Assembly: GCF_004011095.1 (NCBI RefSeq)
Contig: NZ_CP028129.1
Span: 2,852,001 to 2,916,000, forward strand
Origin: Rathayibacter rathayi
Lineage (GTDB): Bacteria; Actinomycetota; Actinomycetes; Actinomycetales; Microbacteriaceae
Length of the DNA stretch: 64,000 nucleotides
Direction: 5' to 3'
Shown: positions 8,868 to 24,458 of the stretch, in pieces
Numbering within the stretch: the first letter of the stretch is position 1
How the letters are laid out: every line of letters begins with the position of its first letter
Translations under genes and position numbers: made by a program
Notes under the pieces: model-generated
Told to the model about the DNA's origin: nothing
What the model saw: the letters and a program-made list of their open reading frames with translations, nothing else
The model's database searches: none

Positions 8868-10325
8868 TCAGCAGGCCGGGCCGATCCAGGCATACTGCTC
8901 ACCCTTCGCGGAGGCGTAAAGACTTCCTTCCAGCGCGCCACCGGACGTCTGCGCGGTCAGCGCTCCGCTGTTGACCGACCGGTAGACGATCCCGTCGTCG
9001 GCGAGGACATAAATGTAGAGACTGCCCGCATTCTCACGGGTGATCTGCTTCGCCTTGACGCCCTTCGGTAGGCCCGTCAGAGCGCTTCCCTGGTTGTAGG
9101 GGACTCCGGCGGTACTGATGTAGGCGAATTGCTCGCCGCCGGACGAGGCGTACAGGCTTCCGTCGAGAGCGGTCGTGTCGGAGCCGTCATCCGCCTTCGC
9201 CTTCGTGACTGCGGTGAGGTCCGAGCTGTTGATCGAGCGGTAGATGATCCCGTCATCGCCCTGGACGTAGATGTACAGGGTGTCGGTATTCTCGCGAGTG
9301 ATCCGCGTCGCCTTCACTCCCTTGGGGAGACCGTTCATCGCCGACGCCTGGTTGTAGGGGACGCCGTCCTCCGACACGTAGGCGAACTGCTGACCGGACG
9401 CGGAGGCGTAGAGACTGCCCTTCTTGGCCTTGACACTCGTCACTGCCGTGAGAGCCGAGCTGTTCTTCGAGCGGTAGATGAGTCCGTCGTCACCGAGCAC
9501 GTAGATGTACAGGTTGTCACCCGCGTTCTCGCGCGTGATCTGGGCCGCCTTGACGCCCTTCGGTAGGCCCGTCAGAGCGCTTCCCTGGTTGTAGGGGACT
9601 CCGGCGGTACTGATGTAGGCGAACTGCTCGCCCTGAGCCGAGGCGTAGAGGCTGCCTGCCAGGGCGGTCGTGTCGGAGCCGTCGTCGGACGTCTTCTTCG
9701 TCACGGCGGTGAGGGCTGCACTGTTGATCGAGCGGTAGATGAGGCCGTCATCTCCTCGGACGTAGATGTACAGGCTGCCGCCCGCGTTCTCGCGGGTGAT
9801 CTGGGTCGCTTTGACTCCGCTCGGGAGGCCGGTCACCCGAGTGCCGTTACTGAAGGGCGTGCCGGGGGTCTCCGTGGCCGCTGCGACCGGAGCACTCGTG
9901 CTGAGGCTTTCGGAGGATGCGGAGAAGGAACTATTGCCTCCCTTGGCGGGGACTGCGATGTCCGGAAGCGAGATCAGGCCTTCCGCATTGGTGGTGCCGC
10001 TGTAGGTGGTTGTTCCGCCTCTGAAGGTGTAACCGTCTTTCAGGGTGACGGTGATGGTTTTACCCGAATCGGCGGTGGTGCCGTCGGTCGTGCGCTTGAC
10101 CTGGACTCCGGTGATGGTGCCGCAGGCTTTCCCGGAGTAGGAGGACTTGGTGAATTTCAGGGTCGGTGTTCCGGATGCGGCGGCGGCAGGAGTAGCGAAA
10201 GACATCGCGATGACGGGGACGCTCCAGGCGGTCCCTTCGACAAGGGTTCTGCGGTGGACGCCATCGGCTGCGGGAATGCTCCAGCCGTCGTCGATACGGA
10301 TGGTGCGGGGGATGCGGTCGTTCAC
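8868..10325 (-). CDS. Secreted repeat protein with RRTLV-type leader
   Basis: A 485-residue protein. The leader is unusual: about 24 hydrophilic residues, then HRRTLVEGTAWSVPVIAM and an AAAASG cleavage region, which suggests Tat-type export. Residues 55-145 form an Ig-like domain (GKTITVTLKDGYTF); the rest contains four repeats of about 70 residues, each with a QITRENAG-like turn, LYIYV.GDDG(L/I)IYRS and SLYAS..GEQFAY(I/V)S, likely beta-propeller or tectonin-like blades. Two repeats share 78 identical base pairs. It is divergent from a frameshifted AraC-type gene, the same arrangement as the two modules at 20-24 kb. Function unknown; probably a surface or secreted binding protein. Confidence 0.8.
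   Translation of the reverse strand: MNDRIPRTIRIDDGWSIPAADGVHRRTLVEGTAWSVPVIAMSFATPAAAASGTPTLKFTKSSYSGKACGTITGVQVKRTTDGTTADSGKTITVTLKDGYTFRGGTTTYSGTTNAEGLISLPDIAVPAKGGNSSFSASSESLSTSAPVAAATETPGTPFSNGTRVTGLPSGVKATQITRENAGGSLYIYVRGDDGLIYRSINSAALTAVTKKTSDDGSDTTALAGSLYASAQGEQFAYISTAGVPYNQGSALTGLPKGVKAAQITRENAGDNLYIYVLGDDGLIYRSKNSSALTAVTSVKAKKGSLYASASGQQFAYVSEDGVPYNQASAMNGLPKGVKATRITRENTDTLYIYVQGDDGIIYRSINSSDLTAVTKAKADDGSDTTALDGSLYASSGGEQFAYISTAGVPYNQGSALTGLPKGVKAKQITRENAGSLYIYVLADDGIVYRSVNSGALTAQTSGGALEGSLYASAKGEQYAWIGPAC
9051..9623 (-). repeat. 78-bp identical repeat pair within the secreted repeat protein gene
   Basis: The segment 9051-9128 is repeated exactly at 9546-9623, a distance of 495 bp (165 codons, in frame). 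Recombination between the copies would delete two protein repeats while keeping the frame. Confidence 0.85.
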
Positions 10326-10477
10326 GGTGCCTCCAGAGGCTGATCGGGATGTGGACGGGCCTCATCGTTCTGCGGCGCGGCACCCGTGCAGAAGCGCGGG
10401 CGGCACGGTGTGGAAATTCCGTCCGGGAACTCTGGAAGTCGGGTCCTCTGAGCTGGCCGGTTCTCGACACTGATGGC

Positions 10478-11448
10478 TTGGCCTCTCTCAGCGCACCGCC
10501 CTCGTCCCTCCCCCCGGATGTCCATGTCGCGGAGGCTGTCTCGGCGACCCGCCGAAGCGATTCCTCCGACCGGGGCGTGGTCGCCGAGGGGGTGGTGGCG
10601 CGCGAGTGGCTGGCGCGGCACGGCGTCGTCGTCACGGTCGGCGGGGGCGCCTGCGGTTGTTCGCCGATGCGGTCGGTTCGGAGGAGCTGGTGCTGAGGCG
10701 GATGTGGCACACCGGTCGCGAGGTGCGTCGCCGGGGACGTCCCGGTGGTGCCGTCGTGAGTCTGCTCGTGGAGGGAGTGCTGACCGTGTGCGATGGCGCA
10801 GGGGTGGAGCGGGCGGTGGAGACCGGCGGAGGGCTGGTCCTCTGGTCCGACTCCGCGGTGACCGCGACCAGCGAGGGGCGCTGCGGAACGATCGAGGTCG
10901 CCGTGGGCAGGCAGGTGCTCGAGCGGTTTTTCGCCTGGACCGACGTCGGCGTCACCCTCATCCCTGCGGGGGTGGCCACGGCGCGGATCCTCCTCGCCGC
11001 GGTCAGCACGGCGTTGACCGGACCCGTGCAGCCGCGGGATCCGGCGTGGCCTCTGATCGGCGACATGATGGGCAGCGGGGTCGGCGCCCTCTTGGCCGAG
11101 ATCGGCCCACCGATCAGCCCGTCCGCGCCGGCAACGGCCGTGCGACTCCTGCGGCGCGCCCACGCGGTCATCGAGCGCCACTGCGGCAACGCCGCGTTCG
11201 ACGTGCGCGCTCTGGCGTCCGAGCTCTCGGTGTCAGTGGCGTCGCTCTACTCCGCCTTCTCACATTTACCGCAGACCCCCGCTCAGGCCGTCCGGGCTGC
11301 GAGGGTGCGCGCCGCGAATCGGATGCTGGACTTCCGCCCCACGGCGACCGCTGCGGATCAGGAGGCGGTGGCCGAGCTGGCGGGTTTCATCTCGGCGGAG
11401 GCGATGTCGAGGGCGATCCGGACGGAGGCACGGAGACGGCGACCGTGA
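10478..11448 (+). pseudogene. AraC-family regulator interrupted by one frameshift in a G-run
   Basis: Bases about 10478-10645 encode the family N-terminus (DRGVVAEGVVAREWLARHG) in one frame; from about 10650 the protein continues in another frame with LRLFADAVGSEELVLRRMWH, a cupin-like domain and an AraC DNA-binding domain (FDVRALASELSVSVASLYSA) to 11448. Restoring one G in the G5 run at 10643-10647 fuses both parts into one normal regulator of about 320 residues. The downstream part alone has a possible ATG at 10606. The start (TTG 10478 or nearby) is uncertain. It diverges from the secreted repeat protein gene, which it presumably controls or controlled. Confidence 0.7.
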
Positions 11449-11582
11449 CCACCGTCAGGCCGCCCCCCGGGGCGCACTGCCACTGCGCGCCCGCATCCTC
11501 AACCCCTCCGTGCTTCCGGCTGCGGGCCCGCGCTCGTCGCGTACCGTGATTCGCGACTCATGACGGCGACGAGGGAGACACC

Positions 11583-12977
11583 ATGACGGAGCAGATCGGC
11601 ATCCCCGCGGCCGGGGCGCTGGGGAGCGAACAGCGGAGCATCGCGATTCTCGGCGCGGGCGGCGACCTCACCGAGCGGCTGCTGCTGCCGGGCCTGGGCC
11701 GGGTGGCCGAGCTGGCGCGCGATCTGGAGCTGACGCTGATCGGGGCGGCGCGCACGCCGCAGAGCGACGAGGAGTGGCAGGGGCTCGTCCGCCGCAGCCT
11801 CGAGGCGGCCGGAGTCGCCGCGCACACGGTTGACGCGCTCGCCTCGCGCGCGCGGTTCGTCGCCACCGACGCCTCCGATCCGGAGCAGCTGAAGGCCCTC
11901 CTCGACGCCTGCCCGTCGACTCCGGTGCTCTACGTGGCGCTGCCGCCGGCGATGGGGCATGCCGTCGCCTCCTCGCTCGCGGAGCTGGACTTGCCCGAGG
12001 AGCTGGTGGTCGCGATCGAGAAACCGTTCGGCGAGGACCTCGACGACGCGATCGCGCTCAACGCCGCGTTCGCGAAGGTCCTCCCCGAGAGCCGGCTGTG
12101 GCGCATCGACCACTTCCTCGGCAACGCGACTGTGCTGGGGATGCTGGGCCTGCGCTTCGGCAATCGGCTGCTCGAGGCGAGCTGGAGCGCCGAGCAGATC
12201 GAGAAGGTCGAGATCGTCTACGACGAGACCCTCGGGATCGAGGGGCGCGCGGCCTTCTACGAGAAGACCGGCGCGCTGCGCGACATGCTGCAGAGCCACC
12301 TTCTGATGGTGCTCGCACTGACCGCGATGGAGCGCCCCGACGAGGTCGCGCCCGACGAGGTGCACGCCCGGATGGCCGAGGTGCTCGGTGCCGTGCGGCT
12401 CTGGCGTGACGATCCCTCCTCCGCCCGCCGCGCCCGCTACACCGAGGGGCGGATCGACGGCCGTTTCCTCCCCTCGTACGTCGACGAGCCCGACGTTGAC
12501 CCCGAGGCCGGCACCGAGACCCTCGCGCAGCTGCTGCTCCAGATCGACACCCCGCGCTGGGCGGGCGTCCCCTTCGTCCTGCGCTCCGGCAAGGCGATCG
12601 GCGACCCGCGATGCGAGGTGGCGATCCACTTCCGCGCGGCCACTGCGCCGCGGGGGCTGCGCGGGGCCCAGGCGGGTACGGTGCTTCGGATCGGCCTCAA
12701 GGGCGGGGACGTGCGGCTGGATGTCGTCGTGACCAGCGCGGATGAGCTGACCGACCTTGAGCACACCACGGTGGAAGCGCGGCCCGGCGCGGCGACGCTG
12801 GACCCGTACGCGCAGGTCCTCGCGGGCGTTGTGCAGGGGGACACCCTGCTGGCCGTGCCCGGCGATGTGGCTGAGCAGTGCTGGCGGATTGTGACGCCGG
12901 TGCTTTCGCACTGGGCGGCGGGGGAGGCGCCGCTGGAGGAGTACGCGGCGGGGAGCGGGGGGCCGGAGGGGTGGTGA
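11583..12977 (+). CDS. zwf: Glucose-6-phosphate dehydrogenase family protein
   Basis: A 464-residue protein with an N-terminal Rossmann domain (ILGAGGDLTERLLLPGL, residues 22-38), and the substrate and catalytic segment RIDHFLGN near residues 174-181, whose His is the conserved base (usual form RIDHYLGKE). It oxidises glucose 6-phosphate with NADP to 6-phosphogluconolactone, the entry step of the oxidative pentose phosphate pathway. It is somewhat shorter than the ~510-residue main actinobacterial Zwf and stands alone rather than next to transaldolase, OpcA and 6-phosphogluconolactonase genes, so it may be a secondary paralogue. The ATG at 11583 follows GGGAGACACC. Confidence 0.85.
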   Translation: MTEQIGIPAAGALGSEQRSIAILGAGGDLTERLLLPGLGRVAELARDLELTLIGAARTPQSDEEWQGLVRRSLEAAGVAAHTVDALASRARFVATDASDPEQLKALLDACPSTPVLYVALPPAMGHAVASSLAELDLPEELVVAIEKPFGEDLDDAIALNAAFAKVLPESRLWRIDHFLGNATVLGMLGLRFGNRLLEASWSAEQIEKVEIVYDETLGIEGRAAFYEKTGALRDMLQSHLLMVLALTAMERPDEVAPDEVHARMAEVLGAVRLWRDDPSSARRARYTEGRIDGRFLPSYVDEPDVDPEAGTETLAQLLLQIDTPRWAGVPFVLRSGKAIGDPRCEVAIHFRAATAPRGLRGAQAGTVLRIGLKGGDVRLDVVVTSADELTDLEHTTVEARPGAATLDPYAQVLAGVVQGDTLLAVPGDVAEQCWRIVTPVLSHWAAGEAPLEEYAAGSGGPEGW

Positions 12978-13251
12978 GACGCGCTGCGAGCGATCGAATT
13001 GCTTGCACCGGGTATGACTATGACGCACGGTCGCTGCTCGACTGCGTCTGCGCCGTCTTCCTCAAAGACATTGACGGCACCCGATATCGTACTATCGGCT
13101 AGTAAAATTCGATTGCTGTTACTCAACAGTACCCATTTTTTCGGCGGTATCTACCGACATCGACCCCCTTCGGGGAGGGCTGTTTCTTAGTCACTCCTAC
13201 ACCATGCTCGGACGACCAGCCGGAGTGCTGGTGGAACGAGAGAGATTACTG

Positions 13252-13803
13252 ATGTGTCTCAAGAAGCGCGCCATAGTCCTGACGGGGAGGATAGCGTGCC
13301 TGATATTTTTCACCGTGGGTATGGCTGCACCCGCCGAGGCCGCAACAGGGCCGGGAGGGCGGGTCATTACTTGTCAACTCACCGTTCATTACCCTCATAA
13401 TTTTGGGCACATAAACGGCACGATCAACGTCACCTCGGATATTCTTTGCAAGGGTGGAATTGTCGACCAGTTGAATTCATCGACAGGCCTTAGAGGGGCG
13501 CAGTCGTCGAACGACTGGGCGCAGAAGTACAACGACACCTACGTTTCGTCGAACGCGGCGAGGCCCTGCAAGGACGGCACCTATCGGGGAATCGGCTCCG
13601 GCACTGTGACATTCCCTGCTGGGTTCACGCCTCGGACGGCAAGTCTCGAAGGAAGCGGAGCCACGAAGACCATCAATTGTAGCAAGCAGTCCAGCGCGCA
13701 GAACATCGAGCGCAGTAGCTCCTCCGTCTCGAGTGGCACGGGCTCCACCGCGGACGAGGATGTCGTGTACGTCGAGGTCAGCGCGGTGGAGACGAGCGGG
13801 TAG
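13252..13803 (+). CDS. Secreted protein of unknown function, AT-richer than surroundings
   Basis: The 183-residue product begins at ATG 13252, after GAGAGA, with a Sec signal peptide (basic MCLKKR, hydrophobic core, cleavage after PAEA near residue 32). The mature part starts with VITCQLTVHYPHNFGHINGT, a cysteine-containing beta domain, and ends in a Ser/Thr-rich tail. Codon use and base composition (many A/T third positions) differ from the G6PD gene upstream, suggesting horizontal acquisition. Only three bases separate it from the next gene, so the two are one unit. I do not recognise a function; an extracellular effector or inhibitor is a possibility, not shown. Confidence 0.7.
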   Translation: MCLKKRAIVLTGRIACLIFFTVGMAAPAEAATGPGGRVITCQLTVHYPHNFGHINGTINVTSDILCKGGIVDQLNSSTGLRGAQSSNDWAQKYNDTYVSSNAARPCKDGTYRGIGSGTVTFPAGFTPRTASLEGSGATKTINCSKQSSAQNIERSSSSVSSGTGSTADEDVVYVEVSAVETSG

Positions 13804-13806
13804 CGC

Positions 13807-14430: not shown

Positions 14431-14928
14431 TTCCCCGCCTAGGGTATGAGGGGGTGCGAGGGGGGCGTGGGCCGAAGGACTTGTGAGGTCGAGGCACGGG
14501 CAGGGCCGGCGCTTCAGCGTGATCGGAGGGAATCGTGGACCGCAATTGGGCGACTGACAACGGCCTTATCTCGGACCGAAAGCTCTCGACTGCGGTTTGG
14601 CAAGATAGGTGGGAGGTGTGGCAAAAGCGTGAATTCTCACGCGGAGTATAATATTCAGACGGGTCTCCTCGTAATGATGTATTATGCTTCGCGTCGAACT
14701 CAGGTGCCGTTATCGAAGATGAGGGACGTGAATCCGAGCCTCGGAGTGCGGCTGGCGGGAGTGCTGCGGGTCATGACGGTTCCACTCTCCACTCTCCACT
14801 CTCCACTCTCCGATCTGCGGGTGCGGGTCGCGCCCGGGACCTCCCTCGCCGCGCCCGAGCATGCGGACGTCGCGGTACTCGCACGCGACTCCTCTCACTC
14901 CTGCGCGCCCGCGCCCCACCACTCTCGG
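14431..14928. other. Intergenic region upstream of the ABC importer
   Basis: No gene supported. It contains a heptamer tandem repeat (CCACTCT, about four units, 14782-14812), an AT-rich patch with a TATAAT at 14647-14652 next to a hairpin GCGTGA-ATTC-TCACGC, and ends at the first LacI-type operator. Confidence 0.5.
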
Positions 14929-14942: not shown

Positions 14943-14993
14943 CACAAACCCTTGACCTCCCCACACCCCCGTACATGTGCTCGCCGCACACCT

Positions 14994-15011
14994 CGTGAGA
15001 GCGCTCTCACG
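14994..15011. promoter_or_regulatory. LacI/CebR-type operator 2
   Basis: CGTGAGAGCGCTCTCACG is a perfect 18-bp palindrome sharing the AGAGCGCTCT core with operator 1. The two centres are about 67 bp apart, and the putative promoter lies between them, a layout suited to repression by looping. The LacI regulator at 18724-19875 is the obvious ligand. Confidence 0.8.
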
Positions 15012-15078
15012 AACCGCGGCACAGCACGCGGGGGAGCGCTGTCAGGGGTGCTCCCACCACCACCACGAAGGAGTGACC

Positions 15079-16389
15079 GTGCTCGCATCACGACGTGCCG
15101 GGGTCGCCACAGCGATCGCCGGCGCCGCCACTCTCGCCCTCCTCGTCTCCGGATGCACGTCCGGCTCGGACGCGGCAGAGGGCGGGGACATCGAACTGAC
15201 CGTCACCACGTTCAACGCTATGGGCTTCGATGAGCTCTACGGCGAGTACGAGGACGCCCACCCGGGCGTCACCATCGTCCCGAACAACATCGACACGGGC
15301 GGCAACGCGCGGACCGACGCGTTCACCAAGCTCGCGGCCGGCTCCGGGCTCGCCGACGTCGTCGCCATCGAGGAGGGCTGGCTCGGCTCCGTCATGGAGG
15401 TCTCGGACCAGTTCGTCGATCTGCGCGACTACGGCATTGAGGACCGCAAGGCTGACTGGGTCGACTGGAAATACGAGCAGGCGACCGACCCCGAGGGGCG
15501 CGTCATCGGCTACGGCACCGACATCGGACCCGAGGGCCTTTGCTACAACACCGCCGCCTTCGAGGCCGCGGGCATGCCCACCGATCGGGCCGCCGTCGCC
15601 GAGATGCTCGGCGGGGCGGACGCGACCTGGGACGACTACTTCGCCGCCGGGAAGAAATACCACGACGCCACCGGCAAGGCGTGGTTCGACCACTCCGGAT
15701 TCGTCTGGAACGCGATGGTCAACCAGCTGCCCGAGGGGTACTACACCGCCGACGGGAAGCTCAACGTCGACGGCAACCCCGACCTCAAGGAGCGCTGGGG
15801 CCAGCTGACCGACGCCACTGCCTCTGGCCTCTCGGCCGCGCAGAAGGCGTGGGACTGGAATAAGGGCACGTCGTTCACCGACCAGACCTTCGCCACCTTC
15901 GTCTGCCCGGGCTGGATGTTCGGCACGCTGAAGAGCAACGTCGAGGCCGGTGGCGGCAACGCCGAATCCACCGGCTGGGACTTCGCCGATGTCTTCCCCG
16001 GCGGGCCCGCGAACTGGGGCGGCTCGTTCCTCTCGGTTCCCACCCAGTCGAAGCACCCCGCCGAGGCGGCGGCGCTCGCGTCGTGGCTCAGCGAGCCGGA
16101 GCAGCAGCTGAAGGCGTTCGAGGCGGCCGGACCGTTCCCGAGCACCCTCGCCGCGCAGAAGGAGCTCGCCTCCGCGGCTGCCCCCGACCCCGGCATGAAT
16201 GACTCGCCGACCGGTGCGATCCTCGCGCAGCGCGCCGAGGGTGTCGTCGCCCAGTACAAGGGCCCGGACGACTCGCTGATCCAGGAGAACGTCTTCGGAC
16301 CGGTGCTGCAGAAGGTCGACCGCGGCGAGATCGACGGCAAGGAGGGCTGGAACGAGGCGCTCCAGCTCCTCGGCGAACTCGTCGACTGA
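15079..16389 (+). CDS. Extracellular sugar-binding lipoprotein of an ABC importer (CebE-like)
   Basis: A 436-residue family-1 solute-binding protein starting at GTG 15079, chosen because GAAGGAG (15067-15073) is optimally spaced. The leader ends in the lipobox LLVSGC at about residue 26, so the protein is lipid-anchored outside the membrane. The mature sequence opens with IELTVTTFNAMGFDELY and shows ADVVAIEEGWLGSVME and YNTAAFEAAG, as in CebE-type cellobiose/oligosaccharide binders. It captures a sugar and delivers it to the two permeases downstream. Two GC hairpins follow its stop and may stabilise its mRNA end. No ATPase gene is linked; a shared MsiK-type ATPase is expected elsewhere. Confidence 0.88.
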   Translation: MLASRRAGVATAIAGAATLALLVSGCTSGSDAAEGGDIELTVTTFNAMGFDELYGEYEDAHPGVTIVPNNIDTGGNARTDAFTKLAAGSGLADVVAIEEGWLGSVMEVSDQFVDLRDYGIEDRKADWVDWKYEQATDPEGRVIGYGTDIGPEGLCYNTAAFEAAGMPTDRAAVAEMLGGADATWDDYFAAGKKYHDATGKAWFDHSGFVWNAMVNQLPEGYYTADGKLNVDGNPDLKERWGQLTDATASGLSAAQKAWDWNKGTSFTDQTFATFVCPGWMFGTLKSNVEAGGGNAESTGWDFADVFPGGPANWGGSFLSVPTQSKHPAEAAALASWLSEPEQQLKAFEAAGPFPSTLAAQKELASAAAPDPGMNDSPTGAILAQRAEGVVAQYKGPDDSLIQENVFGPVLQKVDRGEIDGKEGWNEALQLLGELVD

Positions 16390-16403
16390 CGACCCCCGAT
16401 CCC

Positions 16404-16472
16404 GGGGGTCCGGTCGCCGCCGGACCCCCGGCCCCCGCGCGGCGGGATGTCCCCCGGGTCGTCCCGCCGCGC
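16404..16472 (+). terminator. Double hairpin between binding-protein and permease genes
   Basis: Two strong stems follow the binding-protein stop: GGGGGTCCGG/CCGGACCCCC (16404-16429) and GCGCGGCGGGA/TCCCGCCGCGC (16437-16472). In ABC operons such stems commonly attenuate read-through and protect the upstream transcript, giving more binding protein than permease. Confidence 0.75.
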
Positions 16473-16537
16473 GAGACCTCTCCGCGCTGCCGCCCCGCGC
16501 GCACCACCGACTCCGACTCGACCTCGAAGAGAGCGCC

Positions 16538-17632
16538 ATGACGAGCACACTCACCCCGCCGGCCACGGCGACGCCCCCCGCGGGGAAGCGGCGCCCGGCG
16601 CCCCGGCTCCCGCTGACCTTCCGGCAGCGCACGAGCCGCTTCGACGTGAAGGCCTCGCCCTACCTCTACATCTCGCCGTTCTTCCTGCTCTTCGCGCTCA
16701 CGGGCGCGTTCCCGCTGGTCTATACGCTCGTGGTGTCGCTCTACGACTGGCAGCTGCTCCAGGGCCAGGGCGACTTCGTCGGGCTCGCGAACTTCGCGGC
16801 GGTGCTCGGCGACCGCTTCTTCTGGAACTCGATCGTCAACACGCTGAGCATCTTCCTGCTCTCCACGATCCCGCAGCTCGCCGTCGCGCTGCTGCTCGCG
16901 GCGGCCCTCGACCAGGCGCTCCGGGCGAGCACCTTCTGGCGGATGAGCGTGCTGCTGCCGTACATCGTGTCGCCGGTCGCGGTGGCGCTGATCTTCTCGA
17001 GCGTGTTCAGCGACCAGGAGGGCCTGATCAACAACCTGCTCGGCCTGGTCGGCGTCGGCCCGATCGAATGGACGAACGACCGCCTGGCCAGCCATGTCGC
17101 GATCGCGACGATGGTGAACTGGCGCTGGACCGGCTACAACGCACTCATCCTCCTCGCGGCGATGCAGGCCGTGCCGCGCGAGCTGCACGAGTCGGCCGCG
17201 ATCGACGGAGCGAACGCCTTCCGCCGTTTCCGCTCGATCACGATCCCGAGCATCCGGCCGACCCTGATCTTCGTCATCATCACCGCCACCATCGGCGGCC
17301 TGCAGATCTTCGCGGAGCCGCGCCTCTTCGACGTCTCGAACGCCGGCGGCATCGGCGGCTCGGACCGGCAGTTCCAGACCACCGTCCTCTACCTCTGGGA
17401 GATGGCCTTCTTCCGCCAGAACTTCGGCGAGGCGGCCGCGATCGCGTGGCTGCTGTTCCTCCTGATCGTGCTGATCGGACTGCTGAACTTCGCGATCTCG
17501 CGGCGCATCGCCTCCGTCGAGAACCGGATCGCCCGGCGCACGACGCGCCGCCGCCCCTCCGCCGACGAGATCGCCGCCGCGGACCCCATGCTCACCACCA
17601 CCGGCCTCGGCCAGAACGCGAGCGAGCGATGA
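16538..17632 (+). CDS. ABC sugar transporter permease (MalF/CebF-like)
   Basis: A 364-residue integral membrane protein with about six transmembrane segments (first around residues 45-70, SPFFLLFALTGAFPLVYTLV). The cytoplasmic EAA loop ELHESAAIDGANAFRRF, which docks on the ATPase, lies near residue 213. It forms the heterodimeric channel with the next gene product, with which it overlaps by four bases (ATGA). Length fits the MalF-type class; the N-terminal Pro/Ala-rich tail is cytosolic. Confidence 0.9.
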   Translation: MTSTLTPPATATPPAGKRRPAPRLPLTFRQRTSRFDVKASPYLYISPFFLLFALTGAFPLVYTLVVSLYDWQLLQGQGDFVGLANFAAVLGDRFFWNSIVNTLSIFLLSTIPQLAVALLLAAALDQALRASTFWRMSVLLPYIVSPVAVALIFSSVFSDQEGLINNLLGLVGVGPIEWTNDRLASHVAIATMVNWRWTGYNALILLAAMQAVPRELHESAAIDGANAFRRFRSITIPSIRPTLIFVIITATIGGLQIFAEPRLFDVSNAGGIGGSDRQFQTTVLYLWEMAFFRQNFGEAAAIAWLLFLLIVLIGLLNFAISRRIASVENRIARRTTRRRPSADEIAAADPMLTTTGLGQNASER

Positions 17633-18513
17633 CCGCCCCCGCCACCTCCGCCGCCTTCCCGGTGCGCCGCGCCCGCCGCGGCGCCTCCCGCGCCGGCCGC
17701 GTCGACCGGCCCGGCTTGCTCACCTACGGGCTGCTCAGCGCGTTCATCCTCGGCTCGACCTACCCGCTGTGGTGGTCGTTCGTCGTCGCGAGCGGCAGCA
17801 ACGCGACCCGCAGCGAGACGTTGCCGCTCGTGCCGGGCGGGAACTTCCTCGCCAACGCCGCGCAGGTGCTGACGGCGATCCCGTTCTGGACGGCGCTGCT
17901 GAATAGTGTGCTCGTCTCGGGGATCATCACGCTCTCGGTCGTGTCGTTCTCGACGCTGGCCGGCTACGCCTTCGCGAAGCTGCGGTTCCGCGGGCGCGAC
18001 GGGCTGATGATCGGAGTCGTCGCGACGATGGCGATCCCGACGCAGCTGGGCATCATCCCGCTGTTCATCCTGATGCGGGAGCTGGGCTGGACGGGCTCGC
18101 TCGGCGCGGTGATCGTGCCCACGCTGGTCACGGCGTTCGGCGTGTTCTTCATGCGGCAGTACCTGGTCGACGTGATCCCGGACGAGCTGATCGAGGCGGC
18201 GCGGATGGACGGGGCGAACCAGTTCCGCACCTTCCTCACCGTGGCGGTGCCGGCGGCGCGTCCGGCGATGGCGATCCTCGGGCTCTTCACGTTCATGATG
18301 GCGTGGACCGACTTCCTCTGGCCGCTGATCGTGCTCAGCCCCACGAATCCGACCCTGCAGACGGCGCTCGCGCAGTTGCAGTCGGGCTACTACGTCGACT
18401 ACTCGATCGTGCTCGCCGGCGCCGTGCTTTCGGTGGTCCCGCTGCTGGTGCTGTTCCTGCTCGCGGGGCGGCAGCTGATCGCGGGGATTATGAGCGGAGC
18501 GGTGAAGGGCTGA
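17629..18513 (+). CDS. ABC sugar transporter permease (MalG/CebG-like)
   Basis: A 294-residue permease beginning at the ATG that overlaps the previous stop (ATGA at 17629-17632). It has about six membrane helices and the EAA loop ELIEAARMDGANQFRTF near residue 188. With the upstream permease it forms the membrane channel of a CUT1-type oligosaccharide importer. The C-terminal LIAGIMSGAVKG is typical of the MalG group. A hairpin region follows before the regulator gene. Confidence 0.9.
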   Translation: MTAPATSAAFPVRRARRGASRAGRVDRPGLLTYGLLSAFILGSTYPLWWSFVVASGSNATRSETLPLVPGGNFLANAAQVLTAIPFWTALLNSVLVSGIITLSVVSFSTLAGYAFAKLRFRGRDGLMIGVVATMAIPTQLGIIPLFILMRELGWTGSLGAVIVPTLVTAFGVFFMRQYLVDVIPDELIEAARMDGANQFRTFLTVAVPAARPAMAILGLFTFMMAWTDFLWPLIVLSPTNPTLQTALAQLQSGYYVDYSIVLAGAVLSVVPLLVLFLLAGRQLIAGIMSGAVKG

Positions 18514-18531
18514 CGCTGGCGCGCGTGACGC

Positions 18532-18603
18532 CGGCTCGCGGAATCGTGTTCGGCTCGCGGGAATCGACGCCGTCCGCGAGCCGAGCGCGTTTCTGCGAGC
18601 CGA
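18532..18603. repeat. Inverted repeats of a CGGCTCGCGG motif
   Basis: CGGCTCGCGG occurs at 18532-18541 and 18551-18560, with the complement CCGCGAGCCG at 18574-18583 and a near copy at 18594-18603. Two alternative 10-bp stems can form between the permease and the regulator gene, a likely terminator. Confidence 0.65.
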
Positions 18604-18723
18604 AGCTGCGCGGCGCCGCTTCCGAAGAGCCGCGATCCGCATCCCTCGCGTCGGGAGCGCTGCGGACGAGCCGCGTCCTGCGGCGCTCGGCTAGCCTCGG
18701 AACGATCCGCGAGGAAGGCCCGC

Positions 18724-19875
18724 ATGACCCATGACACCGCCTCGGCGGCCCCGACCCTCGAAGCCGTTGCCGCGCTGGCCGGAGTCTCCCGCGCCACGGT
18801 CAGCAGGGTCGTCAACGACTCCCCGCGCGTGAAGGACGGCGCCCGCACCGCGGTGCTCGCCGCGATCGACCAGCTCGGCTACGTCCCGAACCGCGCCGCG
18901 CGCTCCCTGGCCAGCCGCCGAACGCGGACCGTCGCGTTCGTGGTGCCGGAGTCGGCGGCGAAGGTGTTCGCGGATCCGTTCCTCGCCTCGGTCGTGCAGG
19001 GCGCCGCGATGGCGTTCGCCGGTACCGAATACACGCTCACCATCGTGATCGCGTCGGAGGCGGCACCAGAGAAGACGCGGCGCTACCTTCTCGGCGGCAA
19101 TGTCGACGGCGCCCTCGTCGTCTCGCACCACAGCGGCGACCACTCCTCCGCGCAGCTCGGCGCCTCCCTCCCCGTGGTGTTCGGCGGGCGGCCGCTGACG
19201 GAGGACGGCGGCAGCTACTTCGTCGACGTCGACAACTTCGGAGCGGCGCGCGCCGTCACCGAGCACCTCCTGAGCCTGGGCCGCACGGCTCCCGCGATGA
19301 TCGCGAGCCGCCAGGACATGCCCGCCGCGATCGACCGCCTGGCCGGCTGGCGATCGGCCGTTGGGGCGGCCGGTCTCGACGCATCGGCCGTCGAGTACGG
19401 GGATTACTCGCCCGAGGACGGCGCGTGCGCGATGCGCCGCCTCCTCGACTCTGGTCGGCCGATGGACGCGGTCTTCGCCTCCAACGACCAGATGGCGGCG
19501 GGAGCCCTGACGGCGCTGCGGGAGCGCGGGCTCACGGTGCCGGGCGACATTGCGCTCGCGGGCTTCGACGGCGACTACTTCGCGGAGGCGAGCGAGCCGC
19601 GCCTGACCACGGTGCGCCAGCCCTCCACGGGACTCGGCGAGGCGATGGTCGACGTGCTGGTGCGCCTCCTGGCCGGCGAGGAGGTCCAGCGCGTGACGCT
19701 GCTGCCGACCGAGCTGCTGATCCGCGGCTCCACCGTCCCCGCTGGAGGAGGGGCGCTCGCTGAGTCGCCCGAGACGGCGCGGGTGTGCGGCGTGTCGCGG
19801 GCCGATCCGGGCGACTCAGCGAATCCGCCGTCCTCGGTGACGGCGTCGGTCGTCACGAAGCTCTGGGAGGCGTAG
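18724..19875 (+). CDS. LacI-family repressor of the sugar importer (CebR-like)
   Basis: A 383-residue regulator: residues 11-60 are a LacI helix-turn-helix (LEAVAALAGVSRATVSRVVN), followed by the hinge and a periplasmic-binding-protein-like effector domain (GNVDGALVVSHHSGDHSS; DAVFASNDQMAAGAL; LAGFDGDYFAEASEPRLTTV). It probably represses the upstream importer at the two AGAGCGCTCT palindromes until its sugar inducer arrives. The normal family end is around LLIRGSTV; about 45 further residues are encoded by DNA that includes the inverted repeat at 19757-19822, so the tail is likely an acquired extension. Confidence 0.88.
   Translation: MTHDTASAAPTLEAVAALAGVSRATVSRVVNDSPRVKDGARTAVLAAIDQLGYVPNRAARSLASRRTRTVAFVVPESAAKVFADPFLASVVQGAAMAFAGTEYTLTIVIASEAAPEKTRRYLLGGNVDGALVVSHHSGDHSSAQLGASLPVVFGGRPLTEDGGSYFVDVDNFGAARAVTEHLLSLGRTAPAMIASRQDMPAAIDRLAGWRSAVGAAGLDASAVEYGDYSPEDGACAMRRLLDSGRPMDAVFASNDQMAAGALTALRERGLTVPGDIALAGFDGDYFAEASEPRLTTVRQPSTGLGEAMVDVLVRLLAGEEVQRVTLLPTELLIRGSTVPAGGGALAESPETARVCGVSRADPGDSANPPSSVTASVVTKLWEA
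19757..19822. repeat. 15-bp inverted repeat inside the LacI gene's 3' end
   Basis: Arms TCGCTGAGTCGCCCG (19757-19771) and its exact complement (19808-19822) enclose 36 bases. The element lies inside the reading frame and encodes part of a non-conserved C-terminal tail of the LacI protein. Confidence 0.85.
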
Positions 19876-20125
19876 GTCGGCTGCTGCATGCTCCCACTCT
19901 TTCGACCGGGCGTCGCGGCCGGCTGGCTGCCCGCCTCCGCGAGATGCCACTTATGAGCGCGACACGCCGGGCGAGGCGCACATAAGTGGCATCTCGCGGG
20001 AGGCGGGCGGGGCGGCTCGGGGGGCGGCGGCGGGCCGCTCGGTCGATGGCGACCAGCACGTCCGGCTGCCGCAGGGTCGGCGTCTCGGCGGTCAGCTGCT
20101 GCGAGAGGCCGGTGTCGTCGGTCAT
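19853..20125 (-). CDS. Short hypothetical protein, probably disrupted by hairpin element A1
   Basis: The reading frame starts at ATG 20125, which overlaps the previous stop (ATGA) and has GGGAGGAGCGGAG just upstream, a strong ribosome binding site. The first ~35 residues (MTDDTGLSQQLTAETPTLRQ and on) look coding, but the rest runs through the inverted repeat at 19930-20007 and has no coding character. This suggests that insertion of the repeat truncated a real gene. No function recognised. Confidence 0.35.
   Translation of the reverse strand: MTDDTGLSQQLTAETPTLRQPDVLVAIDRAARRRPPSRPARLPRDATYVRLARRVALISGISRRRAASRPRRPVERVGACSSRPTPPRAS
19930..20007. repeat. Long inverted repeat, family A (core CGCGAGATGCCACTTATG), copy 1
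   Basis: Left arm 19930-19955 and right arm 19981-20007 are complementary over 26 bases with one bulged C. The arm sequence CTCCGCGAGATGCCACTTATG is repeated exactly in a second element 32 kb away (51781-51855). The loops differ. It lies downstream of the LacI gene and inside the short minus-strand reading frame 19853-20125. Confidence 0.9.
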
Positions 20126-20331
20126 CTCCGCTCCTCCCGCGGGTAGACGTCGTCGACGGTCACGTCGATCCGCACCATCCCGCCGGGCACAGAGACGTCA
20201 TCGTCGAGTGTGCAGCGGCCCATGATGACGCCGCCCATCATGTCGCCCGCGCGCCGAATCATGCCGCGCACGGCCGCCCCGGCACGACCGCGCTGCTCCG
20301 CGCGACTCCCGCCAGTGTCGTCCGGCGTCAC
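20122..20331 (-). CDS. Short hypothetical protein coupled to AraC-type gene
   Basis: A possible 69-residue product starts at a GTG (20331-20329) overlapping the TGA of the AraC gene (GTGA) and ends in ATGA overlap with the next short frame. It contains a methionine-rich segment IRRAGDMMGGVIMGRCTLDD and ends RIDVTVDDVYPREERR. Overlaps on both sides suggest translational coupling in an operon with the regulator. I do not recognise the family; a decayed domain is also possible. Confidence 0.4.
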   Translation of the reverse strand: MTPDDTGGSRAEQRGRAGAAVRGMIRRAGDMMGGVIMGRCTLDDDVSVPGGMVRIDVTVDDVYPREERR

Positions 20332-21236
20332 GCACGGTCGCGCAGGGCCTCGCGCAAGCTCCGAGAGCTGCGAAAGCCCGTGCGGTCCGCGACGTCGTCC
20401 CAGTCGAGCGGTCTCGACGGCTGTTGCGCGGTCAGGCGCCGGACGACGACCAGCCTCGCGCGCTCGATCTCTGCACGGGGCGTGGAGCCGGCGGCCGCGA
20501 AGGCCTCGAAGAGCCGGCGCTCCGAGATCGACACGAGGGAGGCGAGCGCTGTGACTGTCAAGGTGCGATCGGTGCACCGCTCGTGAATGATCCGCCGGGC
20601 CCGCCGGAGGATGTCCGCCTCCGCACTCGACGCCATCGTGGCGGAACGGCCGGCCTCGAGGAGCGTCCCGGCGACCGTCGTCTCCAGGGCGTTCAACCAC
20701 AGGGGCCAGGCCGGACCGGACGCGCTGAAGGCGGACAGGAAGGCGTTGCTGCTCGCGGTCAGGAACCGCGTCGCTCCCGTCGCCGGCAGCGGGAGCGCTC
20801 CCCAGACGCCGCAGAGCCCGAAGCGCTGCTCAAAGTTTTCGCCGAGCCGGATCTCGATGGTGCCGGTCGATCCGTCAGTGTCGAGTGTGGCGACCACGCC
20901 GCCCCTGCGCAGGTAGCCCTCCCCCTTGCCGATGGTGAACCGTCGGGAATCGGTCGCCACGACCAAGTGGCCCTCGAGGAGGAAAGTGAGCGCGAGGTCG
21001 TCCGCCGTCTCGCTGGGGCGGGCGCGCAACCGCGCGAACGAGTGCCAGAGGCGAGCCACGGTGAAGTCCCTGGAACGGGTGAGATCGGCGAAGACCCTCC
21101 CACTGATCGGATCGTCTAACACATCGAAGCCGTTCGTTCTCAGCCACTGCTCGGCCGCTCGATCGGTGACCGCCACTCCCCGCTCGATCAGCGCGTCGCT
21201 CCCGTCGTGAGCCGTCTCCGAATGCGGTCGGTGCAT
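20328..21236 (-). CDS. AraC-family regulator, module 1
   Basis: A 302-residue regulator beginning at ATG 21236 with GGGAGG spaced 8 bases upstream. The N-terminal half has the family text IERGVAVTDRAAEQWLRTNG, then FTVARLWHSFARLRAR and FTIGKGEGYLRRG, a cupin-like sensor fold. Residues 205-300 carry the AraC double helix-turn-helix (LTVTALASLVSISERRLFEA; RPLDWDDVADRTGF). The gene is divergent from a secreted-protein gene 216 bp away and is paralogous to the gene at 22662-23579. It presumably controls the divergent promoter; inducer unknown. Confidence 0.85.
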   Translation of the reverse strand: MHRPHSETAHDGSDALIERGVAVTDRAAEQWLRTNGFDVLDDPISGRVFADLTRSRDFTVARLWHSFARLRARPSETADDLALTFLLEGHLVVATDSRRFTIGKGEGYLRRGGVVATLDTDGSTGTIEIRLGENFEQRFGLCGVWGALPLPATGATRFLTASSNAFLSAFSASGPAWPLWLNALETTVAGTLLEAGRSATMASSAEADILRRARRIIHERCTDRTLTVTALASLVSISERRLFEAFAAAGSTPRAEIERARLVVVRRLTAQQPSRPLDWDDVADRTGFRSSRSLREALRDRA

Positions 21237-21452
21237 CTGCTTTCCCTCCCCGCGCTGTCGCGCAGCGACCTTAGGAGACGCAGGCGAGCATCGACGGGCG
21301 GAGACGGTTTCCCGCGGAAGAACCGACGAAAAGGCGCGGAAGCCGAACCGGCGGGCCGCCGCGCCGTCACTGTTGCGGAGCGCCTCGACCGGGAACGGCG
21401 GGGCGCGGGACCGGGGCAGACCCCGGTCCTCCCCCAACCCTCGAGGAGAGCA

Positions 21453-22121
21453 ATGACCTACGACCACACCGGCCCGACGAAGGACCTCGTTCTCGGCGGC
21501 GAGTGGAAAATCGACGACGCCTCACCCGTCGGCCCCGTCCGCCGCACTCTCGTGTCGGCCGCCGTCTGGACCGTGCCGGCACTGGGAGTGGCGATCGCCA
21601 CTCCGGCAGCGGCGGCGTCCGGGAGTAAAGGCACGGCGGCGAAGACAAAGAAGTCGGATCTGCGCAACACCTACACCGCGTGGAACGCGCAGGGCGGGCA
21701 GAAGGACGTCCCCGCCGACAGCACCTTCGCCGCCGACAACGGCCTCTTCGTGCACGCGAAGGTGATCAACGACGGACCCGACACGGTCACCGGCATCACC
21801 GCTGCCCTGGAACTGCCGCACTACAGCAATCAGATGAACCGCGGACGAGCGCACTACCCGGTCGCACGGAACGGCTGGGAGTACTACACCGACTACGCGA
21901 AGGGCACGGACAAGTGGGTGTTCACCTTCATCAAGCGTACGCTGACGCTCGCGCCGGGGGAGCGTTCGGAGGTGGCCATTGATTTCTGGACGATCCCCGA
22001 CGCCGGCCGCACCGCGAAGGACATCCACCCCTACGTTGCCTTCCAGACGACCGACGGCGAGGAGACAAACCAGCAGAACAACGGCAAGTCCACCGACAAC
22101 GGCTACAACGTCCGCACCTAA
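21453..22121 (+). CDS. Secreted Ig-like protein with RRTLV leader, module 1
   Basis: A 222-residue protein starting at ATG 21453 (GAGGAGAG upstream). The leader has an acidic N-region with LVLGGEWKI, then VRRTLVSAAVWTVPALGVAI and ATPAAAASG, a Tat-like signal with an unusually long (about 28 residues) pre-RR part. The mature domain includes WNAQGG, a CARDB/DUF11-like stretch VHAKVINDGPDTVTGITA, and TLTLAPGERSEVAIDFW, so it is probably one extracellular beta-sandwich. It is nearly colinear with the protein at 23793-24458. Function unknown. Confidence 0.8.
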   Translation: MTYDHTGPTKDLVLGGEWKIDDASPVGPVRRTLVSAAVWTVPALGVAIATPAAAASGSKGTAAKTKKSDLRNTYTAWNAQGGQKDVPADSTFAADNGLFVHAKVINDGPDTVTGITAALELPHYSNQMNRGRAHYPVARNGWEYYTDYAKGTDKWVFTFIKRTLTLAPGERSEVAIDFWTIPDAGRTAKDIHPYVAFQTTDGEETNQQNNGKSTDNGYNVRT

Positions 22122-22136
22122 TCCCGCACCAGCAGC

Positions 22137-22168
22137 AGGCCCCGCCCGTCATCGGCCGGCGGGGCCTT
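22137..22168 (+). terminator. Terminator of secreted-protein gene, module 1
   Basis: Arms GGCCCCGCC and GGCGGGGCC flank an 11-base loop 16 bp after the stop, followed by TTCC. The same structure with nearly identical arms follows the module 2 gene. Confidence 0.85.
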
Positions 22169-22661
22169 CCGCGTCTCCTCTGCCTGTTGCTGCCGGTCAT
22201 CCCGGGAGAGAGGGATCAGCGAAGGCCGGATTCACCGAGACCGGGCAGTTGCCGCGACCGGATCGGTGACGGCGGGGCTAAGGAGCGGCCCCGCTCCGAC
22301 TCCTACCTCGCAGCGCCAACGAGTTGGCGGCGGGCTCCTCCCGCAGTGGCATCCGAGTGGCGAGCACGGCGCTTATACAGCCGAGGACGGCGAACAGCGT
22401 CGCGGGGGATGACCGGTGTCCGCGGGGAGGAGCCAGGCCGGCGGATCCAGCGCGAGCAGGTGCGCGGCCATCTGCGGACGATCGCCAGGAACCGGGCGAG
22501 ATTGACGGCGACGATCCTCGTCTCGGAAAGACTGTCGTCGTGCAGGGTCGACGAGCGAGAGGAGGAGGATTTCTCGGCGGCGACCCCCTTCGCGCCGCGC
22601 GTTGCACCTGCCCCGTCGTGAGGGACGGGATGATTCGGTGTCGGCGCTCGTGCGAGCGGCC
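22169..22661. other. Spacer between the two duplicated modules
   Basis: No complete gene. On the minus strand near 22280-22410 there is a short hydrophobic coding-like stretch (ATLFAVLGCISAVLATRMP) that resembles one membrane helix of a transporter and has no start or flanking domain; it is likely debris. Confidence 0.4.
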
Positions 22662-23579
22662 TCAGGCCCGGTTGCGCAGCGCCGCACGAAGGCTCCGCCC
22701 GCTGCGGAAGCCGGAGCGTCGGGCGAGCTCGTCCCAGTCGACATGCCCTGCGCACGACCCTGCCGATAGGCGTCGGACGATGGCGAGCCTGGTGCGCTCG
22801 ATCTCGGCGCGGGGCGTGGTCCCCGCTGCCGCGAACGCCTCGAAGAGCCGGCGCTCCGAGATCGAGACGCGCGCGGCGAGGGCGCTGACCGTCAGCTGGG
22901 GGCTGGTGCAGTGCTCGCGGATGATCCGCTGGGCGTGCTGCACCAGGGCGGCCTCGGCTGGCGAGGTCATCGGGAGCGACGCGCCAGCCTCGAGCAGGGT
23001 CCCGGCCGCGGCCGCCTCCAGGGCCAGCAGCCACAGCTGCCAGCCGGGGCCGGCCGCGGTGCAGGCGGAGAAGACAGCGTTGCTGCTCGCCGTCAGAAAG
23101 CGCACCGCTCCGGTCGCCGACAGTGGCGTCGCCTCCCAGCGGGCGGTGAGGCCGAAGCGCCGCTCGAATCCTGCCCCGAGCAGGATCTCGATGGTGGCCG
23201 TCGAGCCGCGCGTCTCGAGAGCCACCTCGATGCTGGACGGACGGAGGTAGCCCTCGCCCTTCTCGATCGTGAACCGCTCGGAACTCGACTCGACCTGCAC
23301 CGTGCCCTCGAGGACCAGAACGAGCACCAGATCGTGCACTGTCCCCGCGGCACAGCTGATCAGGTGGGAGAAGGAGTGCCAGATCCTCGCCACGGTGAGG
23401 CCCTCGGAGTGGACGACGTCCGCGGCGAGCCTGCCCGCCCGCGATTCCGGTGAGACGAGATAGCCGTGCGACTCCAGCCACCGATCCGCTGTGTCGCCGA
23501 CCGCGAGCACACCCCTCTCGATCACCGGACCTACGGATCCGTTGGCACGCTCAGCAGACCTCGCCTCCGCTCGCTGCAT
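22662..23579 (-). CDS. AraC-family regulator, module 2
   Basis: A 305-residue paralogue of the module 1 regulator, colinear over its whole length; start at ATG 23579. Conserved family points are VIERGVLAVGDTADRWLESHG, LTVARIWHSFSHL, FTIEKGEGYLRPS, RFLTASSNAVFSA, and the two helix-turn-helix units (LTVSALAARVSISERRLFEA and WDELARRSGF). It diverges from the secreted-protein gene at 23793 with a 213-bp shared upstream region. The N-terminal sensor has diverged more than the DNA-binding half, consistent with different inducers after duplication. Confidence 0.85.
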   Translation of the reverse strand: MQRAEARSAERANGSVGPVIERGVLAVGDTADRWLESHGYLVSPESRAGRLAADVVHSEGLTVARIWHSFSHLISCAAGTVHDLVLVLVLEGTVQVESSSERFTIEKGEGYLRPSSIEVALETRGSTATIEILLGAGFERRFGLTARWEATPLSATGAVRFLTASSNAVFSACTAAGPGWQLWLLALEAAAAGTLLEAGASLPMTSPAEAALVQHAQRIIREHCTSPQLTVSALAARVSISERRLFEAFAAAGTTPRAEIERTRLAIVRRLSAGSCAGHVDWDELARRSGFRSGRSLRAALRNRA

Positions 23580-23792
23580 CTCCACTCCACTTCCCCACTG
23601 CTGAGCAGCGACCCTAGGAGACGTCGATGGGGGTCGGGTGTAGCCGCCGCAGAACCGCGGAGACGGTGACCAAGACCTGCGGAATCGGTGTCGGTCGCAT
23701 GCCGCGCACCACACAGTTGCTGGACGCCGCCGGTGGAGATCGGCGAGACGCAGGCAGGACGCTCCCGTCCTCCCCAGACACGAGGAGAAGCA

Positions 23793-24458
23793 ATGACTCG
23801 AGACAGCACCGACCAGACCAGGGACATCGTCCTCGGCGGCGAGTGGACCATCCCGGACTCGACCGCCGAGGGAACTCGACGACGGACGCTCGTCTCGGCC
23901 GCCGTCTGGACCGTGCCCGCGGTGGGAGTTGCGATCGCGACTCCGGCGGCGGCTGCGTCCGGGAAATCCTCGACCACGACAGCGAAGAAGGCCGATCTGC
24001 GCAACGCCTCTACCACATGGAACGCGCAGGGCGGGAAGAAGGACATCCCGGCCAACAACACCTTCGGCGCCGACAAAGGCCTCGTCGTGCACGCAAAGGT
24101 CACGAACGACGGACCCGACACAGTCACCGGCATCACCGTCTGCATCAAATTGCCGCACTCCTCCCACCAGATGGACCGCGCACGCCCGCACTACCCGGTG
24201 GCAAGCAAAGGCTGGGCGTATCTGAACGACTACGCATTCGGCTTCGACTGCTGGGTGTTCACCTTCGTCAACCGCACGCTCACCCTTGCGCCGGGGGAGA
24301 GCGCGGAAGTGGACATCACGTACTGGACGACCCCCGACGCCTTTCGCGTGGGGGAGAGCATTCACCCGTTCGTCGACTTCCAGATGGTCAGCGGCGAGGA
24401 CACGAACCTGTCCAACAATGCCAGGTTCACCGACAACGACTACCACGTCCACACCTGA
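23793..24458 (+). CDS. Secreted Ig-like protein with RRTLV leader, module 2
   Basis: A 221-residue homologue of the module 1 secreted protein, starting at ATG 23793 after GAGGAGAAGCA. The leader again has IVLGGEWTI, RRRTLVSAAVWTVPAVGVAI and ATPAAAASG. The mature part keeps WNAQGGKKDIPANNTFGADK and VTNDGPDTVTGIT but has two cysteines (in TVCIKLPH and FDCWVF) that module 1 lacks, possibly a disulfide. It ends before the conserved terminator. Presumably exported by Tat and controlled by the divergent AraC regulator; function unknown. Confidence 0.8.
   Translation: MTRDSTDQTRDIVLGGEWTIPDSTAEGTRRRTLVSAAVWTVPAVGVAIATPAAAASGKSSTTTAKKADLRNASTTWNAQGGKKDIPANNTFGADKGLVVHAKVTNDGPDTVTGITVCIKLPHSSHQMDRARPHYPVASKGWAYLNDYAFGFDCWVFTFVNRTLTLAPGESAEVDITYWTTPDAFRVGESIHPFVDFQMVSGEDTNLSNNARFTDNDYHVHT

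What the first reader, a model, noticed from the sequence alone, without database searches (positions are those of the whole stretch)
8868..24458. Recurrent module: AraC regulator with an R-[LIM]-W-H-[ST] sensor domain, divergent from an RRTLV-leader secreted protein
Three loci (8868/11448, 20328/22121, 22662/24458) share one layout: a minus-strand and a plus-strand gene, one encoding an AraC protein whose N-terminal domain contains RGV...A..WL..G and R-[LIM]-W-H-[ST], the other a secreted protein with a long hydrophilic pre-region, RRTLV, A.W.VP and ATPAAAASG. Further regulators or remnants of the same family lie at 1578, 3852, 42844 and 45246. Seven relatives in 45 kb, three tied to the same class of export leader, suggests a dedicated regulator/surface-protein system that spreads by duplication. 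Observation is direct; function is inference.
Basis: partly seen in the sequence, partly recalled or inferred. Interest (0 to 1): 0.75.

Follow-up and report, generated by a model that had tools for sequence, protein, structure and literature searches.

The report
Self-regulated secreted propeller-protein modules in Rathayibacter
In this plant-associated bacterium a secreted-protein gene and its own regulator gene, read away from each other, recur as a two-gene unit about ten times in the genome and again in relatives; most of the secreted proteins here end in a highly variable, possibly sugar-binding propeller, so each bacterium may carry a set of separately switched recognition proteins.

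Summary
The window lies in a 3.10-Mb Rathayibacter chromosome (R. rathayi or a close relative) with 10 divergent pairs of an AraC-type regulator and an RR-leader gene, three of them in the window. Across 15 genus genomes, 43 of 72 family regulators face a leader gene within 1.5 kb (median gap 248 bp), against 0 of 27 control AraC genes; 32 of 41 strong leader genes face a regulator. Gaps between the genes hold direct repeats spaced 21-22 bp, differing in sequence between modules (11 of 32 gap families), the operator geometry of AraC proteins (recalled); this supports local regulation. The main secreted type is leader + Ig-like domain + near-repeats (8 of 10 pairs here, 26 of 48 in the genus), modelled once as a propeller; this part is hypervariable (26% mean identity against 68% for the Ig domain). 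In two regulators of this genome homology changes frame at G14 and G10 tracts, suggesting phase variation. The 'long hydrophilic pre-region' is a start-codon artefact, and the leader alone is widespread. Ligand and function are inferred, not shown.

The parts
8868..10325 (-). Module 1 secreted protein (485 aa): Tat-like leader, Ig-like domain (52-150), predicted propeller (160-485, eight blades by my reading of the strands), C-terminal Cys
   Evidence: A2 profile 252 bits; model pLDDT 73, pTM 0.62; propeller matches
10326..10605 (.). Module 1 intergenic region; the upstream end of the regulator's family homology (about 10562-10639) lies in it and slightly beyond, in another frame
10606..11448 (+). 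Module 1 AraC-type regulator, frame-broken near 10640
   Evidence: A1 profile 251 bits from model position 35; model positions 8-33 in another frame, E 7e-4
20328..21236 (-). Module 2 AraC-type regulator, 302 aa
   Evidence: A1 357 bits; HTH_18 E 2e-6, below curated cut-off
21453..22121 (+). Module 2 secreted protein, 222 aa: leader + one predicted beta-sandwich domain (low confidence), no propeller
22662..23579 (-). Module 3 AraC-type regulator, 305 aa (57% identical to module 2)
   Evidence: start checked
23651..23689 (.). Direct repeat of 17 bp with 22-bp period (13 of 17 identical): candidate operator of module 3
   Evidence: place checked
23793..24458 (+). Module 3 secreted protein, 221 aa, same kind as module 2 (65% identical)
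3852..4796 (+). Full AraC regulator of the family without listed leader neighbour
   Evidence: A1 397 bits
1578..2273 (+). Sensor-domain-only relative (no HTH matched), no close ortholog in the 15 genus genomes
   Evidence: A1 34 bits, positions 5-188; best other match 39.8 bits
42844..43743 (-). Solitary AraC regulator of the family, conserved ortholog, not paired
   Evidence: 64.9-91.4% identical in the 7 loci examined
45246..45632 (+). HTH-only AraC-like ORF (128 aa)
   Evidence: A1 positions 217-295, E 6e-6; relative in 6 of the 7 loci examined

Best explanation
Each pair is a self-contained expression module. The AraC-type protein binds a private direct-repeat operator in the roughly 240-bp gap and controls, most likely activates, the divergent gene for a secreted protein. 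The main type of secreted protein shares an export leader and an Ig-like stalk and ends in a hypervariable head, in most modules of this genome a propeller that may bind glycans. The modules multiply and diverge as units, giving one cell a repertoire of recognition proteins, each with its own regulator. In a few modules a G-tract inside the regulator gene splits the reading frame and may make the module switch on or off between cells. Shown: pairing, orientation, enrichment, repeat geometry, domain layout, hypervariability, frame change at G-tracts. Inferred: activation, secretion by Tat, glycan binding, switching, and the biological target.
For: Pairing: 43 of 72 family AraC divergent to a leader gene against 0 of 27 controls; 32 of 41 strong leader genes. 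Operator: 17-bp direct repeats with 12 or more matches at 21 or 22 bp in 11 of 32 gap families, summed count 12 against a shuffle maximum of 4; z = 7.5 at 22 bp and 4.0 at 21 bp, other periods at most 3.1 in size; in the central 120 bp of 43 gaps, 8 and 8 against 0-3 for the other 47 periods. No shared motif across modules, as expected of private operators; gaps in three species share GCGCAGnnnGCGCGGA. Cargo: propeller model, lectins among the first Foldseek rows; mean identity 0.68 for the Ig domain, 0.26 for the propeller; internal repeats in 26 of 48 paired cargos; 44 of 49 relatives have exactly two Cys. G-tracts: frame change at G14 and G10 in two regulators, one open regulator in G002 with G10; 3 tracts against 0.064 expected. 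Outside the genus, two of five AraC loci in G086 face genes with weak leader matches (23 and 32 bits).
Against: No expression or binding data. Of the three window modules only module 3 has a clear repeat, and 21 of 32 gap families have none at the threshold. Against real, mostly coding DNA of the same loci the 21-bp count alone is not unusual (10 observed; control mean 6.7, maximum 13), the 22-bp count is (11; mean 1.8, maximum 6), and 21 or 22 together is 19 of 43 against a mean of 8.3 and maximum of 15. Regulator and leader distances correlate only weakly once genomes are held fixed (176 of 2000 permutations reach r = 0.21, 31 pairs). 18 of 72 family regulators have no listed leader neighbour and 11 more have one in another orientation; G003 has family regulators and a strong leader protein but no divergent pair. 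Four genomes without family regulators still hold one leader + Ig-type match each (52-67 bits); G237 and G283 have such genes with no family AraC nearby, and in G172 the AraC is more than 4 kb away. The model is moderate (pLDDT 73), Foldseek TM-scores are low (about 0.2-0.4 by query length in most of the rows shown), the best aligner scores are to WD40-type proteins, and a PDB profile search gave nothing better than E 0.11. The G-tract test is post hoc, and tract length can be mis-assembled.
Confidence: 0.6

Rival explanations
1. The heads recognise glycans of other bacteria (competition or kin recognition), not of plant or nematode: a lectin repertoire like that of Streptomyces umbrella particles.
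For: UmbA proteins pair a conserved domain with highly variable lectin domains, some of them propellers, that choose the bacterial target (PMC13274773, passages).
Against: No trypsin-like domain is among the Pfam families listed for the cargo (the second list is cut at 25). No ALF-repeat match in the window's genome, but that search also rang in none of its 14 control genomes, so it does not show absence. Toxin partners were not otherwise searched for.
Confidence: 0.25
2. The heads mediate attachment to anguinid nematode cuticle or plant surface, and the repertoire sets vector specificity.
For: Attachment of R. toxicus to nematode cuticle is described as the start of infection (PMC5552033, passages), and specific adhesion is the subject of a 1990 paper by Riley and McKay (reference title seen in PMC7143919). 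Relatives of the window protein are named for R. toxicus (13), R. tritici (9), R. rathayi (7) and R. agropyri (4) among the 52 rows; rows may be alleles of several strains.
Against: A module-bearing strain comes from a plant without nematode, and one relative is from R. oskolensis, reported from plants without nematode infestation. The propeller lectins of the nematode symbiont Photorhabdus showed no significant role in nematode colonisation (PMC12203525 abstract).
Confidence: 0.3
3. An ordinary expanded gene family with local regulators; the G-tracts and broken copies are only decay or assembly error, and there is no switching.
For: Several copies are broken without any long tract (window module 1; loci in G014 and G004). 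In Propionibacterium acnes variable G/C tracts follow phylogeny, suggesting slow accumulation (PMC4746626 abstract). Only three family regulators in the fetched loci hold a G or C run of eight or more inside the gene.
Against: In both split regulators the homology changes frame at the tract, and tracts are over-represented in these genes.
Confidence: 0.4
4. Chance neighbourhood: the leader is a generic export signal and AraC genes are common.
For: Leader matches occur in all 15 genomes, and 58 of 74 weak ones have no listed AraC match within 1.5 kb.
Against: 0 of 27 control AraC genes are divergent to a leader; repeats at 21-22 bp.
Confidence: 0.02

Closest known systems
AraC/XylS regulators with a divergent target gene and direct-repeat operator (E. 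coli araC; recalled)
   Same: HTH_18-type C-terminus, divergent target, two half-sites about 21 bp apart
   Different: Tens of diverged local copies with different repeat sequences, each tied to an exported protein; four of five window members score below the Pfam cut-off for HTH_18
PLL/PHL beta-propeller lectins of Photorhabdus
   Same: First Foldseek rows for the cargo; multi-copy propeller lectins
   Different: PLLs are seven-bladed (PMC12203525 abstract); this model reads as eight blades and has an Ig-like domain and an export leader; no sequence relation found
UmbA lectins of Streptomyces umbrella toxins
   Same: Conserved N-terminal part with diversified lectin head, several per genome, in Actinobacteria (passages)
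   Different: No trypsin-like domain among the families listed; no ALF-repeat match in this genome (that search had no positive control); each copy has its own AraC regulator
Homopolymeric-tract phase variation (Neisseria, Helicobacter, Bordetella; G/C tracts in Propionibacterium acnes, PMC4746626 outline)
   Same: Long G-tract inside a coding frame
   Different: The tract lies in the local regulator of a secreted-protein module; length variation is not shown here

Membership tests
AraC/XylS regulators | C-terminal double HTH (HTH_18, PF12833) | tested here: met
   E from 6e-9 to 2e-5 for the five window members; only the one at 3852 exceeds the curated cut-off. The A1 profile finds AdpA, AraC and other AraC-type HTH chains in PDB
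AraC/XylS regulators | N-terminal AraC-type sensor domain | tested here: inconclusive
   PF14525 16.6 bits, below cut-off 27; in PDB one weak match over the sensor part, an uncharacterised protein, E 0.006
AraC/XylS regulators | Direct-repeat operator with about 21-bp spacing next to the target (recalled) | tested here: met
   11 of 32 gap families have it; 21 of 32 do not at the threshold used; binding not tested
Tat substrates | Twin arginine and A-x-A-type cleavage site | tested here: met
   RR.[LIV]V in 44 of 49 relatives; A.A-type pattern in 45 of 49
Tat substrates | Export depends on TatABC | not testable with these tools
   needs an assay
Beta-propeller lectins | Propeller fold | tested here: met
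Beta-propeller lectins | Carbohydrate binding | not testable with these tools
   needs a glycan array
PLL lectin family | Sequence relation to PLL/PHL chains | tested here: not met
   Profile search of PDB up to E 1 gave four chains, best E 0.11, none a PLL lectin
PLL lectin family | Seven blades | tested here: inconclusive
Phase-variable contingency loci | Tract in the frame | tested here: met
   G14 and G10 where homology changes frame
Phase-variable contingency loci | Tract length varies within a population | not testable with these tools
   no reads available
Umbrella toxin lectins | UmbC partner with ALF repeats | tested here: inconclusive
   No match in the genome, but the control genomes were empty too

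The most novel reading that the evidence does not exclude
Rathayibacter runs a modular recognition repertoire in which every variable secreted head has its own AraC sensor and private operator, some modules are toggled by G-tract slippage in the regulator, and free-standing sensor-only and HTH-only relatives of the same family tune the whole set by mixed dimers.
Probability: 0.2. Interest if true: 0.8.

Novelty: new variant of a known kind. Interest (0 to 1): 0.6.

Why it matters
How Rathayibacter recognises particular nematodes, plants or competitors at the molecular level appears to be open. This family gives a defined list of candidate recognition proteins together with their regulators and likely operators, so binding specificity and regulation become directly testable. 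It also offers a natural set of diverged AraC regulator/operator pairs for studying how such regulators stay insulated from one another.

Tried and rejected
Shared operator motif across modules: none, dyad counts equal shuffles. Co-divergence of regulator and leader: weak once genomes are held fixed. G-tracts as a general feature of modules: rejected, only three regulators in the fetched loci have one inside the gene, plus a G9 just upstream of one in G014 (L128). Of the seven further long tracts of this genome that I read, six appear by eye to lie outside coding sequence and one inside a 679-codon open frame. Pfam and NCBIfam names for the cargo: scattered weak or repeat-driven hits. Umbrella-toxin partner: no match but no working control. 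Structure of the 222-aa proteins: low-confidence beta-sandwich, not used for function. Strict nematode link: weakened. Naming other genomes: the one genome-contig scan let me name only G002; G005 was matched through a published table. Literature listings: none of the papers listed or 90 is, by title, about this family, and searches returned no paper; one search found no paper for the 21-bp operator geometry, so that geometry is recalled.

Rows left out: one search used 127 regulator matches (down to 50.9 bits) and 136 leader matches (down to 30.3 bits) of those listed; weaker and unlisted matches were not counted, so 'none' means no listed match. In the family-wide searches only the best 12 or 7 candidates of a genome were scored. 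One search dropped 3 of 48 pairs with gaps over 650 bp, two more over 480 bp. Structure alignments A3 and A4 left out the proteins named R. toxicus (13 and 1); A3 also left out P0032, P0042 and P0050-P0052. In one search the number of regulator genes (35), their length (900 bp) and rounded genome sizes were set by me, and the 30 tracts were counted by hand.
Full report
What was checked. The window is G000:C1:2852001-2916000 of a 3,103,889-base chromosome. Its propeller protein is 98% and its 222-aa protein 93% identical to proteins named Rathayibacter rathayi, and contig C28 of genome G002 has the length and match position of a named R. iranicus contig, so the genus is Rathayibacter. The three loci of the finding are real divergent pairs; coordinates are under parts and were checked. 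The long pre-region is not real: in the aligned relatives the RR lies at residue 25-30.

Genome-wide. A leader-protein query found 14 places and a regulator query 15 places in the chromosome, and they give 10 divergent pairs, three of them in the window. Two more full regulators in the window (3852, 42844) have no listed leader neighbour.

Across the genus. With profiles A1 (9 regulators) and A2 (10 leader proteins) I searched the 15 genomes of the genus. Of 72 family regulators (at least 100 bits, sensor domain matched) 43 are divergent to a leader gene within 1.5 kb, 8 convergent, 3 on the same strand, 18 without listed neighbour; of 27 AraC genes matched only from about model position 66-80 on, 0 are divergent, 1 is on the same strand, 26 have none. 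Of 41 leader genes with at least 80 bits, 32 are divergent, 7 otherwise adjacent, 2 alone; of 21 with 45-80 bits, 5 are divergent and 14 alone; of 74 weaker ones, 9 are divergent and 58 alone. Four genomes have neither family regulator nor strong leader protein, but each still has one leader + Ig-type match of 52-67 bits; G003 has both kinds of gene and no divergent pair. G001 holds five divergent pairs in 17 kb, four with leader + Ig-like domain.

Outside the genus. In 299 family genomes leader proteins at E 1e-15 or better were found in 9 (6 of them Rathayibacter) and regulators at E 1e-36 or better in 6 (4 of them Rathayibacter). In G086 two of five regulator loci are divergent to genes with weak leader matches, one is on the same strand as one, and two have none within 1.5 kb; the cargo there does not look like the propeller by eye. 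In G172 the regulator and the two leader genes are more than 4 kb apart, and G237 and G283 have leader genes with no family regulator in the stretch read.

Operators. In 43 gaps of at most 480 bp, 17-bp direct repeats are enriched at 22 bp (z 7.5) and 21 bp (z 4.0), all other periods from 12 to 60 lying within 3.1. Segments of real, mostly coding DNA from the same loci have a three-base background that raises 18, 21 and 24 bp: against it the 21-bp count (10) is not unusual (mean 6.7, maximum 13 in 200 draws), the 22-bp count (11) is (mean 1.8, maximum 6), and 19 of 43 gaps with either compare with a mean of 8.3 and a maximum of 15. In the central 120 bp of the gaps the counts are 8 and 8 for 21 and 22 bp, 0 for 18, 1 for 24 and at most 3 elsewhere, which coding periodicity does not explain. 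After merging similar gaps into 32 families, 11 have such a repeat, and the summed count of 12 compares with a shuffle maximum of 4. The repeat sequence differs between modules, and no common motif was found. A direct repeat of about 21 bp is the classical AraC operator geometry (recalled). Against: 21 families show none at this threshold, and in the window only module 3 does.

Switching. In two of the ten pairs of this genome the homology of the regulator changes frame at a G14 (43177) or G10 (3046313) tract. In G002 an open regulator frame holds a G10 tract. Tracts of nine or more G or C number 30 in genomes G000-G003, and 3 of these lie in about 35 family regulator genes where 0.064 would be expected. 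The test was made after seeing the tracts, and assembly error is possible. Window module 1 is broken at a short G run only.

Mechanism and comparison. I judge local regulation by the divergent AraC protein very likely, secretion likely, glycan recognition plausible, and switching in a few modules plausible. Targets could be nematode, plant or bacterial glycans; current evidence does not decide. Cuticle attachment by R. toxicus is documented (PMC5552033, passages), but the propeller lectins of Photorhabdus had no significant role in nematode colonisation (PMC12203525, abstract), one module-bearing strain comes from a plant without nematode (PMC7256256, first of two parts read, with the table), and diversified propeller lectins of Streptomyces select bacterial targets (PMC13274773, passages). 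The system works like a set of araC-type local circuits; I do not file the cargo under PLL lectins, because no sequence relation was found, and umbrella-toxin membership could not be decided.

Noticed in passing
42844-43743 and 45246-45632: A solitary AraC of the same family is conserved in all 7 related loci examined (64.9-91.4% identity) and an HTH-only ORF in 6 of them; the nine solitary AraC orthologs have no listed leader match within 1.5 kb.
   Followed up: partly
L052:2777-3301 (G000:C1:2551776-2552300): A sensor-domain-only relative of these regulators, without HTH, has relatives of 48-57% identity in five other genomes (G002, G003, G005, G007, G014): a possible mixed-dimer modulator.
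   Followed up: partly
L053:7890-8051 and 11862-12206: Truncated leader-protein remnants lie among intact modules in the 2.70-2.71 Mb region, which fits birth and death of copies.
   Followed up: no
L184-L188 (G086, another genus of the family): Family regulators beside genes with weak leader matches whose cargo does not look like a propeller by eye, one of it glycine-rich.
   Followed up: partly
33560-33568: A C9 run, the only run of eight or more of one base in the window.
   Followed up: no
L174:1630-1654 (G002): A G25 run a little upstream of an open frame in the genome matched to R. iranicus; may be an assembly artefact.
   Followed up: no
14977-19875: By eye from the translations: a sugar-type ABC transporter binding protein and permease and a LacI-type regulator lie between the modules.
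   Followed up: no
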